DNA of 64,000 bases, taken from the NCBI RefSeq assembly GCF_002994745.2, contig NC_037089.1, positions 80,562,347-80,626,346 on the forward strand, written 5' to 3'. Below, piece by piece: positions 10,297-19,321 of the stretch (its first letter is position 1; each line of letters starts with the position of its first letter). The notes under the pieces were generated by a model that was given only the letters and a program-made list of their open reading frames with translations, searched no databases and was not told the origin of the DNA. The stretch comes from Rosa chinensis (lineage: Eukaryota > Streptophyta > Magnoliopsida > Rosales > Rosaceae). Position numbers and translations under genes: made by a program.

Positions 10297-12361
10297 TGAT
10301 GCGCTCTTGGGAAGCGCATAATTTAACCCTGAAATATCGTTAGTAGTATAAGCAAATAGGGATCGTTCTATCCGGGGATTGAGGGTACACTTGTAATTGT
10401 GAAACAAATAAAGAAAAGTATTATTTACAAAAATAAAATAAAGAATATAAATATATACAATTGTATAAACAAATAAAGAATTAAAATAATAAAGTATTAT
10501 TTACAAAAATAAAATAAAGAATAGAAATATATACAAGTAACAAAATAAAAAGGGAGGGGGTTTAAGAATTATAGAATTGAAAATTAAGATAAATAAAATA
10601 AAGAAAATGTAAAAACATATATACAAGGGTGGATCGCAAGGAACAAAGATCAAAACCACATCCATATGCAAGAAATCCAATTACAATTCCTATAGTTGAT
10701 TTTAAATGTCATGAGAGAGGAGTTGATCATGTGAAACATTCGAAAGCAAATGATTTCCCATATTTTTACTTTTCAATGCTAATTAACCTAAGCGAAAACA
10801 CCTAGATTAATCCTATCAAACATGCAATCAAGCCCTAGAAAGCTAGTCAATCATGACATGTTCAACGCATTAGACATAGAGAAAGGCTATCAACTCAAGT
10901 GTACAACTTAGTATGGAAAAGTCCACCTAATTGCAATCCTCTTTAATTAAATTCGGTCTTTGCACAAAACCTTTACTACTTTGATTCAAGTTTACACAAA
11001 ACGAAAAGTCGATTTCATGTTCTTAAACCTAGCACCAATTATATCAAAACCCTAAGTGTTTGCAACCACATAAGATTAAAATACAAAAGTTTTCTATCAT
11101 GCAAATTTAATTAAACAAACCCACATAAGCAACATAAAAATCAACATATAGAAATCACAACTTTATCTCAAAACATATAAACGGGCTTTAAACTTTGCCC
11201 TTACATTATTTGTTAAATAGAATTCATAGTCTTACAAAATCAAACAAAGAAAACAAGAGAAAGGATATAATACACCTTGAAAGATGAATGATAAAGCCTT
11301 GAGACGAAGAACTTGAAGATCCTTGAAAGCAAGCAATCTTCTAGGGACGACACAAGGGTGGATGGCGGTTAGGAAATTGATGTATTGCATGGCTTCTCTT
11401 TCTCTTGGCTTGAAAATGAAGAACAAGAAAACTAGAGAATGAAGAAATATGGAGAGGAAATGGAGAGACAAAGAAGATGAGATGGATGAAGGAAGGTGTT
11501 TTAGAATGAGAGGAGAAGGTGTTTATATAGGGAAGAAAAAGAAGAGTGAAATGATGAGTGGAAGAAAAATAATGAAAGTGGAGTATGAAAGTGATTTGTA
11601 AAATATGGAAAAGAAAGAGAAATGATGAAATGAAAGCAAAGCATGAAGGTGCAGCAACATGGAAGTGATGATGATCTATTAAAGAGATTGTAGAAAAAAT
11701 ATATCCAAGGAAAAAGAGAAAAGCATCTAGCTTTCTTCATGTGGGTGGGAAACATGAATATGTGGTGTTGAGCTGTTTTCAGGTCAGTTTCTTCCCCTTT
11801 ATTCCTTCAATTATTTCTCCAACAAGACTTCATTATATGCCTTTGACTTCTTCATATGAAATGTTCCACTATGAGTGTAGATCATCCTGACAAATTTTCA
11901 GAGCTTCAATCCATGTGGTTGGGCCGGAAATGCTGCTGGACCTCTTACAGGTCCAGTTTTCCGGTTTTGCTTCTGTAGAAAATTGGGCTGATTGTTTGAA
12001 GGCCTTCCACTCATATTTTTCTCTGGCACTCTTCATAAGAAATGATCCTTTGGGTGTCTAGAATGGATCTGGAAGGTTTCAGCTCATTTGAAGTTCATTT
12101 GGTCAGGCGGCCGCTCCTTCTTCCTTGCTTGGCTCTGATTCTCCTAGCCGGAGTAAGAAAATATTCAAGGTTGACTTTTTAGTGCATTTTCATTCTTCTC
12201 CATCATTTCTAGGTAATTATGGACCTAACGCTCATTTCACCTTCATTTACTCCAATGTACCTAAAAATAGAAATTGAATTAAAATCGATTCAGTTAAGGA
12301 ATTAACTAAGCAAAATGTGAGGAATTAACTATTAAAATACCGCATTAAAATGCTCCTATCA
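10297..12361 (-). repeat. 3' LTR of the WUS-carrying retrotransposon
   Basis: Begins tgatgcgctcttggg and ends tgctcctatca. The copy at 17257 is identical as far as could be read, at a constant offset of 6,960. Short reading frames inside it occur identically in both LTRs and are not genes. Confidence 0.93.
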
Positions 12362-12376
12362 AATTCCCCCACACTT
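12362..12376 (-). other. Polypurine tract of the WUS-carrying retrotransposon
   Basis: In element sense aagtgtgggggaatt directly precedes the 3' LTR. This G-rich form is usual in plant gypsy elements and sets the element orientation together with the primer-binding site. Confidence 0.8.
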
Positions 12377-17251: not shown

Positions 17252-17256
17252 AAAAT

Positions 17257-19321
17257 TGATGCGCTCTTGGGAAGCGCATAATTTAACCCTGAAATATCGT
17301 TAGTAGTATAAGCAAATAGGGATCGTTCTATCCGGGGATTGAGGGTACACTTGTAATTGTGAAACAAATAAAGAAAAGTATTATTTACAAAAATAAAATA
17401 AAGAATATAAATATATACAATTGTATAAACAAATAAAGAATTAAAATAATAAAGTATTATTTACAAAAATAAAATAAAGAATAGAAATATATACAAGTAA
17501 CAAAATAAAAAGGGAGGGGGTTTAAGAATTATAGAATTGAAAATTAAGATAAATAAAATAAAGAAAATGTAAAAACATATATACAAGGGTGGATCGCAAG
17601 GAACAAAGATCAAAACCACATCCATATGCAAGAAATCCAATTACAATTCCTATAGTTGATTTTAAATGTCATGAGAGAGGAGTTGATCATGTGAAACATT
17701 CGAAAGCAAATGATTTCCCATATTTTTACTTTTCAATGCTAATTAACCTAAGCGAAAACACCTAGATTAATCCTATCAAACATGCAATCAAGCCCTAGAA
17801 AGCTAGTCAATCATGACATGTTCAACGCATTAGACATAGAGAAAGGCTATCAACTCAAGTGTACAACTTAGTATGGAAAAGTCCACCTAATTGCAATCCT
17901 CTTTAATTAAATTCGGTCTTTGCACAAAACCTTTACTACTTTGATTCAAGTTTACACAAAACGAAAAGTCGATTTCATGTTCTTAAACCTAGCACCAATT
18001 ATATCAAAACCCTAAGTGTTTGCAACCACATAAGATTAAAATACAAAAGTTTTCTATCATGCAAATTTAATTAAACAAACCCACATAAGCAACATAAAAA
18101 TCAACATATAGAAATCACAACTTTATCTCAAAACATATAAACGGGCTTTAAACTTTGCCCTTACATTATTTGTTAAATAGAATTCATAGTCTTACAAAAT
18201 CAAACAAAGAAAACAAGAGAAAGGATATAATACACCTTGAAAGATGAATGATAAAGCCTTGAGACGAAGAACTTGAAGATCCTTGAAAGCAAGCAATCTT
18301 CTAGGGACGACACAAGGGTGGATGGCGGTTAGGAAATTGATGTATTGCATGGCTTCTCTTTCTCTTGGCTTGAAAATGAAGAACAAGAAAACTAGAGAAT
18401 GAAGAAATATGGAGAGGAAATGGAGAGACAAAGAAGATGAGATGGATGAAGGAAGGTGTTTTAGAATGAGAGGAGAAGGTGTTTATATAGGGAAGAAAAA
18501 GAAGAGTGAAATGATGAGTGGAAGAAAAATAATGAAAGTGGAGTATGAAAGTGATTTGTAAAATATGGAAAAGAAAGAGAAATGATGAAATGAAAGCAAA
18601 GCATGAAGGTGCAGCAACATGGAAGTGATGATGATCTATTAAAGAGATTGTAGAAAAAATATATCCAAGGAAAAAGAGAAAAGCATCTAGCTTTCTTCAT
18701 GTGGGTGGGAAACATGAATATGTGGTGTTGAGCTGTTTTCAGGTCAGTTTCTTCCCCTTTATTCCTTCAATTATTTCTCCAACAAGACTTCATTATATGC
18801 CTTTGACTTCTTCATATGAAATGTTCCACTATGAGTGTAGATCATCCTGACAAATTTTCAGAGCTTCAATCCATGTGGTTGGGCCGGAAATGCTGCTGGA
18901 CCTCTTACAGGTCCAGTTTTCCGGTTTTGCTTCTGTAGAAAATTGGGCTGATTGTTTGAAGGCCTTCCACTCATATTTTTCTCTGGCACTCTTCATAAGA
19001 AATGATCCTTTGGGTGTCTAGAATGGATCTGGAAGGTTTCAGCTCATTTGAAGTTCATTTGGTCAGGCGGCCGCTCCTTCTTCCTTGCTTGGCTCTGATT
19101 CTCCTAGCCGGAGTAAGAAAATATTCAAGGTTGACTTTTTAGTGCATTTTCATTCTTCTCCATCATTTCTAGGTAATTATGGACCTAACGCTCATTTCAC
19201 CTTCATTTACTCCAATGTACCTAAAAATAGAAATTGAATTAAAATCGATTCAGTTAAGGAATTAACTAAGCAAAATGTGAGGAATTAACTATTAAAATAC
19301 CGCATTAAAATGCTCCTATCA
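17257..19321 (-). repeat. 5' LTR of the WUS-carrying retrotransposon
   Basis: Copy of 10297-12361 with no mismatch noticed on line-by-line reading. The flanking gaagg at 19322-19326 is the second half of the target duplication inside the copia integrase. Confidence 0.93.

What the first reader, a model, noticed from the sequence alone, without database searches (positions are those of the whole stretch)
10297..19321. An LTR retrotransposon has captured a complete WUSCHEL-type homeobox gene
The element has paired 2,065-bp LTRs, GAAGG duplication, tRNA-Asp primer site and polypurine tract, yet no gag or pol. Its interior instead holds an intact 207-codon WUS-clade frame with homeodomain (residues 39-103), WUS box (161-171) and EAR-like LELSLN (194-199). 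A mobile element that spreads a stem-cell regulator could alter meristem control wherever it lands. Seen: all motifs and element signals. Known: WUS proteins need these three parts. Inferred: capture by retrotransposition and possible function.
Basis: partly seen in the sequence, partly recalled or inferred. Interest (0 to 1): 0.93.

Follow-up and report, generated by a model that had tools for sequence, protein, structure and literature searches.

The report
Rose jumping element carrying WUSCHEL gene
A recently inserted mobile element in a rose genome carries a shortened but readable copy of the plant stem-cell gene WUSCHEL, and such elements may be why roses have hundreds of these genes while other plants have far fewer.

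Summary
The element at 10297-19321 has identical 2,065-bp LTRs, a GAAGG duplication, a 19-nt tRNA-Asp primer site and a purine tract. Corrections: the element reads on the minus strand, so the homeobox gene (plus) is antisense to it; the gene is an uninterrupted but shortened WUS (207 aa; 296-299 in Fragaria and Argentina); a second ORF (176 aa, minus, named hits only from Rosa) lies divergent to it. The protein is WUS-type, in one Rosa-side clade within Rosoideae WUS. The ORF is not a lone copy: 23 protein clusters with representatives at 80% identity or more hold 269 sequences. Its motifs match 'clade V' (265 of 381 rose WOX genes) of Duan 2024, who lacked a mechanism. I propose this LTR family as that mechanism; only one DNA copy could be read, because the genome search did not complete, and the excess on chromosome 2 is unexplained. 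Vigna is the precedent (over 1000 WOX copies, mostly LTR-flanked), so this is a new member of a known kind. Residue changes hint at constraint in the high-copy clade but not across all Rosa copies. Function is unproven; 359 of 364 rose-only genes are almost silent in rooting.

The parts
17257..19321 (-). 5' LTR in element sense (2,065 bp, TGATAGGAGC...GCGCATCA)
   Evidence: identical to 10297-12361, 0 of 2065 differences
10297..12361 (-). 3' LTR in element sense (2,065 bp)
10292..10296 (.). target-site duplication GAAGG, left
   Evidence: copia frame runs through the joined flanks
19322..19326 (.). target-site duplication GAAGG, right
17233..17251 (-). primer-binding site, 19 nt complementary to the 3' end of tRNA-Asp(GTC), 5 nt from the LTR
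   Evidence: tRNA letters from memory, checked by ARAGORN
12362..12376 (-). polypurine tract next to the 3' LTR
   Evidence: sequence inspection
15407..16030 (+). WUS-derived ORF, 207 aa, antisense to the element; homeodomain about 39-101, WUS box 161-171, EAR-like LELSLN 194-199, two DLNF motifs
14903..15406 (.). 504-bp divergent intergenic region: TATAA at 15285, CACGTG at 14999 and 15171, a 35-bp direct repeat (91%); putative promoter of the WUS ORF
   Evidence: CpG content not distinctive
14372..14902 (-). second ORF (176 aa, MARTK...), sense to the element; named hits only from Rosa; C-terminally short against three relatives
16225..16465 (-). internal direct repeat copy A
   Evidence: 68% to 14110-14372 over 270 columns, E 2e-14
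14110..14372 (-). internal direct repeat copy B; begins where the 176-aa ORF is cut short

Best explanation
This is a young, non-autonomous LTR retrotransposon (LARD-like: LTRs, tRNA-Asp primer site and purine tract present; no recognisable gag or pol) mobilised in trans by an autonomous relative. Its interior carries an antisense cassette made from a rose WUS gene: putative promoter, uninterrupted but shortened ORF, AT-rich 3' end. Antisense placement lets a cassette with its own promoter and poly(A) signal ride in the element's genomic RNA without cutting it short (general knowledge, recalled). Repeated copying of this family spread the cassette and built much of the rose-specific WOX expansion. 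Shown: element structure, insertion with duplication, WUS ancestry, high protein copy number. Inferred: trans-mobilisation, that the other copies are LTR-borne, capture by a misaligned template switch between two elements (from the bracketing repeat). Whether the protein serves the element is left open; I think an inert passenger more likely than not.
For: Structure and empty site. No gag/pol hit in 32 of 32 internal ORFs of 50 aa or more. WUS: PDB best hit WUSCHEL 81.8 bits against 73.6 for STENOFOLIA; the extra Tyr that the WUS structure paper describes is kept; 43 Rosa-side rows form one clade (94/90) within Rosoideae WUS (100/100). Copy number: 269 member sequences in 23 clusters with representatives at 80% identity or more, representatives on four chromosome-size and two short contigs. 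Published: 364 of 381 rose WOX genes are rose-only, 265 in a clade with the same motifs, 0 collinear genes within rose; no recent WGD in Rosa. 359 of 364 almost unexpressed in rooting, as expected of silenced cargo.
Against: Only one DNA copy was readable (17 tries of the genome search, none answered). 226 of 381 genes lie on chromosome 2, uneven for free retrotransposition; tandem or local amplification may contribute. The 176-aa ORF has fewer database members (30 in 6 clusters) than the WOX ORF, so not every WOX copy need have the same neighbours. The R. rugosa genome paper counts only 14 R. chinensis genes in its WUS orthogroup (46 in R. rugosa), so counts depend strongly on annotation. The tree has no non-WUS WOX rows.
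Confidence: 0.78

Rival explanations
1. The WUS cassette is adaptive for the element: its protein acts in meristem or germline-founder cells (stem-cell identity, repression through the EAR motif) and so raises heritable transposition, as captured growth genes do for some retroviruses.
For: In the 19-row high-copy clade homeodomain sites change less than other sites (0.62 against 1.34 per site, permutation p 1e-4) and WUS box plus EAR still less (0.35, p 4.5e-4); five key homeodomain residues show 0 changes there. DLNF motifs are gained: none by the strict pattern in Fragaria and Argentina WUS, one to three in P0001-P0027. A WOX-LTR burst is also reported in Vigna.
Against: The test uses protein cluster representatives, not codons. 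Over all 43 Rosa rows homeodomain constraint is largely lost: homeodomain/other 0.95 or 1.1 without the column filter, against 0.19 in 13 non-Rosa WUS. 359 of 364 rose-only genes almost silent in rooting. Strict WUS motifs are not enriched in the LTR.
Confidence: 0.2
2. The WUS ORF is an inert passenger: an element acquired it and burst; frames are open mainly because copies are young. (A sub-case of the best explanation.)
For: LTRs identical, at most about 56,000-104,000 years at recalled rates; several clusters at 98-99% identity; homeodomain constraint lost over all Rosa rows; silence in rooting.
Against: Open frames with WUS box and EAR occur in deep clades of both R. chinensis and R. rugosa, species split about 5.26 My ago; regional constraint in the high-copy clade.
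Confidence: 0.6
3. Most rose WOX copies arose by tandem or segmental duplication, mainly on chromosome 2, and this element is one side product.
For: 226 of 381 genes on chromosome 2; 12 of the 23 nearest cluster representatives on one 88.6-Mb contig.
Against: 0 collinear genes within rose; no recent WGD; the other representatives lie on three further chromosome-size contigs and two short ones.
Confidence: 0.17
4. Chance nested retrocopy: a WUS cDNA inserted once into an unrelated element.
For: Only one DNA copy was seen; the window holds no second.
Against: Promoter-like region, bracketing repeat, and an 80-member protein cluster whose representative is 99% identical.
Confidence: 0.05

Closest known systems
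WOX-carrying LTR retrotransposon burst in Vigna marina and V. riukiuensis (meeting report PMC10714607; section 7 and passages read)
   Same: WOX genes amplified (over 1000 copies in V. riukiuensis), mostly flanked by identical LTRs with target-site duplications
   Different: Legume hosts; WOX type, orientation and element family not given there. The rose cargo derives from Rosoideae WUS, so I infer an independent capture; no Vigna element sequence was compared
Expanded rose WOX family, clades I-V (Duan 2024, PMC11405225; abstract, sections 3.2, 3.3, 4.1, 4.2 and passages read)
   Same: Clade V motifs quoted there are those of this ORF; 265 clade V genes
   Different: That paper supposes whole-genome duplication and asks for more evidence; 'transpos' and 'LTR' do not occur in its main text
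Maize Bs1 and other plant LTR elements with captured genes (review PMC13317346; section 5 and passages read)
   Same: Host sequence carried inside an LTR element
   Different: Bs1 transduced segments of three genes, none full-length; here one uninterrupted transcription-factor ORF with homeodomain, WUS box and EAR motif, antisense to the element
Canonical WUSCHEL of Rosoideae (Fragaria P0054, Argentina P0048)
   Same: Homeodomain with the extra Tyr, R38/W39/Q89/N90/R94, WUS box, LELSLN
   Different: 207 against 296-299 aa, linker lost, H91 to L, Y86 to F, DLNF motifs gained

Membership tests
LTR retrotransposon | paired LTRs with TG...CA ends and target-site duplication | tested here: met
LTR retrotransposon | primer-binding site and polypurine tract next to the LTRs | tested here: met
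Autonomous Ty3 or Ty1 element | gag and pol | tested here: not met
   no such Pfam hit in 32 of 32 internal ORFs of 50 aa or more; the copia integrase and RT next to it belong to the interrupted host copia
LARD (large non-autonomous derivative) | long non-coding interior (over about 4 kb, recalled) with conserved ends | tested here: inconclusive
   interior 4,895 bp without gag/pol, but it carries two ORFs, and no other copies were seen to judge conserved ends
WUS (WOX modern clade) | WUS homeodomain with extra Tyr and R38, W39, Q89, N90, R94 | tested here: met
WUS (WOX modern clade) | WUS box and EAR motif | tested here: met
WUS (WOX modern clade) | groups with WUS rather than other WOX clades in a tree | tested here: inconclusive
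   within Rosoideae WUS, but the tree holds no non-WUS WOX rows; PDB scores favour WUS over STENOFOLIA
WUS (WOX modern clade) | stem-cell function | not testable with these tools
   needs plants
WOX-carrying LTR families as in Vigna | many WOX copies each flanked by LTRs and duplications | tested here: inconclusive
   one copy shown; the others known as proteins only; genome search unanswered

The most novel reading that the evidence does not exclude
LTR retrotransposons of rose and of Vigna independently captured a WUS/WOX stem-cell regulator because it helps them: expressed in meristem cells, the cargo keeps or makes cells that found the germline, or represses host defence there, so new insertions are inherited. 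It would be a plant counterpart of retroviruses that carry growth genes. Gained DLNF motifs and the conserved WUS box and EAR would mark it as a strengthened repressor.
Probability: 0.15. Interest if true: 0.95.

Novelty: new member of a known kind. Interest (0 to 1): 0.72.

Why it matters
A published puzzle, 381 WOX genes in rose with no mechanism, gets a concrete and checkable answer: many are probably cargo of one LTR family, so family surveys and expression studies in Rosa should ask which copies are element-borne. With Vigna it makes two plant lineages in which LTR elements appear to have amplified a WOX gene, which turns 'why WOX?' into a testable question about selfish elements and stem cells.

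Tried and rejected
CpG retention in the divergent intergenic region (0.97) looked like an unmethylated promoter, but 13% of 1,270 windows of the same length are as high (17% of 255 GC-matched ones): dropped. WUS-binding motifs in the LTR: TGAATGAA 0 (0.33 expected), TGAWTGAW 1 (1.04 expected); only a loose spaced pattern was up (7 against 3.3, reached by 14 of 300 shuffles): not used. Lower change at five homeodomain key residues across all Rosa rows is not significant (0.13). One internal ORF and one 176-aa relative gave sub-threshold Pfam hits (PadR; SlyX), taken as chance. The 176-aa model is helical with mean pLDDT 59, no inference drawn. IMG/VR viral contigs hold no relative. Introns: the frame is uninterrupted, but I had no rose WUS gene DNA, so capture from cDNA was not tested.

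Literature limits: ten searches of open-access PMC only. For rose with WUS/WOX I saw listings of 30 of 73, 18 of 18, 23 of 23, 15 of 15 and 15 of 16 papers, for WUSCHEL with LTR capture or retrotransposition 3 of 3 and 4 of 4; no title or abstract start there ties the rose expansion to LTR elements, and I opened only some of them. The 2018 Nature Plants rose genome paper has no 'WUS', 'WOX' or 'homeobox' in its main text. Two papers are not held.

Full report
What is there. The window is from a rose, to judge by its nearest proteins, named Rosa chinensis. The element at 10297-19321 has LTRs of 2,065 bp without a single difference, GAAGG on both sides, and a 19-nt primer site for tRNA-Asp 5 nt from the right-hand LTR. 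The element therefore reads on the minus strand. Taking it out with one GAAGG lets the copia integrase frame of the right flank run through the junction for 22 codons, to a stop that lies in the left flank; the residues after the junction hit a copia SH3-like domain at E 0.0015, below the curated cut-off. A second frame of the same stretch is open too. With 0 of 2065 differences the insertion is at most about 56,000 years old at 1.3e-8 per site and year, or 104,000 at 7e-9 (rates recalled).

Cargo. The interior is 4,895 bp. None of its 32 stop-to-stop ORFs of 50 aa or more has a gag or pol hit. It has a 207-aa ORF on the plus strand, antisense to the element, and a 176-aa ORF on the minus strand, divergent over 504 bp with a TATAA 122 bp before the first ATG of the WUS ORF and two CACGTG. 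The 176-aa protein has 6 hits among 245 candidates of a 5.8-billion-sequence database; two are named Rosa chinensis, four have no organism. It is shorter at the C end than three relatives that reach there, and the cut falls where an internal direct repeat begins. That repeat (68%) brackets both ORFs, which suggests that the cargo block was joined in by a misaligned switch between two elements (inference).

The protein is WUS-type. Best solved relative: WUSCHEL, 81.8 bits, then STENOFOLIA, 73.6. Against Fragaria WUS the stretch with the homeodomain is 58% identical (55 of 95) and the C-terminal stretch with WUS box and LELSLN 48% (51 of 106). The model gives 51 residues at pLDDT 90 or more, in the three homeodomain helices, a low-confidence N-terminal helix, and disorder elsewhere. 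Residues that the WUS structure paper (PMC7203112, passages) names for base reading or docking (R38, W39, Q89, N90, R94) and the extra Tyr are kept in the window copy; H91 is Leu and Y86 is Phe. Over 43 Rosa rows N90 is kept in 43, R38 and W39 in 42, R94 in 40, Q89 and the Tyr in 35. Most of the linker is lost; a DLNF motif appears twice here, one to three times in P0001-P0027, and not in Fragaria or Argentina WUS. Its likeness to EAR-type DLN motifs is recalled, not tested.

Not a lone copy. Of 140 hits the 120 best were listed. The 23 clusters P0001-P0023, whose representatives are 80% identical or more, hold 269 member sequences (members were not compared one by one; 6 of them, in P0014, have no named organism). 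Their representatives lie on four chromosome-size contigs (12, 3, 3 and 3 of 23) and two short ones. A tree of 56 rows (39 Rosa, 3 unnamed, the window ORF and 13 other WUS rows, chosen from 199 proteins; many near-duplicate or truncated Rosa rows left out, no other WOX clade included) puts all 43 Rosa-side rows in one clade (94/90) within Rosoideae WUS (100/100), and the window in a 19-row high-copy clade (100/99) whose sister is a four-row R. rugosa clade (joint support 99/98).

Link to print. Duan 2024 (PMC11405225) count 381 rose WOX genes, 364 in rose-only clades, 265 in clade V whose quoted motifs are those of this ORF, 226 on chromosome 2; 170 in R. multiflora and 105 in R. rugosa; they suppose whole-genome duplication, find no collinear genes and ask for more evidence. 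The R. rugosa genome paper (PMC8213826, section 7 part 1 and passages) finds no recent duplication; its table of changed orthogroups lists WUS with 46 R. rugosa and 14 R. chinensis genes, beside many element proteins. That 14 does not fit 381, so such counts hang on the annotation. My reading, that this LTR family built clade V, would explain dispersal, near identity, missing collinearity and silence (359 of 364). It does not by itself explain the excess on chromosome 2. It rests on one DNA copy, since the genome search did not complete.

Precedent. A meeting report (PMC10714607, section 7) tells of more than 1000 WOX copies in V. riukiuensis; the amplified genes there and in V. marina mostly have identical LTRs and duplications. 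So the kind is known. The rose cargo comes from Rosoideae WUS, so I infer a separate capture; no Vigna element sequence was compared.

Selection. By parsimony on the tree, 13 non-Rosa WUS change 0.57 per homeodomain site and 3.07 per other site (ratio 0.19); over 43 Rosa rows the ratio is 0.95, or 1.1 without the column filter (3.57 against 3.23). In the 19-row high-copy clade it is 0.62 against 1.34 (p 1e-4), with WUS box plus EAR at 0.35 (p 4.5e-4); mean pairwise difference in 28 close sequences points the same way (homeodomain 0.093, WUS box 0.052, linker 0.128, tail 0.300). This hints that the lineages which spread kept a working protein, but it uses cluster representatives and no codons, and the wider Rosa set speaks against it.

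Noticed in passing
22958-58972: BAHD acyltransferase cluster (PF02458): four ORFs of 460-489 aa (25260, 40475, 42905, 57584) and a truncated one (22958-23416).
   Followed up: partly
8122-20439: A Ty1/copia element on the minus strand is split by the WUS element; its integrase frame runs through the joined flanks to a stop 22 codons on.
   Followed up: yes
28422-30875: hAT transposase in two ORFs: weak BED-finger and Hermes DNA-binding hits, then a strong hAT dimerisation domain (2.6e-29).
   Followed up: no
34847-37533: copia gag (PF14223) and a chromodomain-type end (PF00385) close together, probably parts of two further retroelements.
   Followed up: no
14372-14902: The divergent 176-aa ORF family has hits named only from Rosa and some on contigs of 0.5-2 kb without a named organism; role unknown.
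   Followed up: partly
proteins P0122, P0124-P0126, P0014, P0036, P0059: Rose-like sequences on 0.5-3 kb contigs of unnamed ENA, LGN or JGI origin; if transcripts, they would show expression of the cassette.
   Followed up: no
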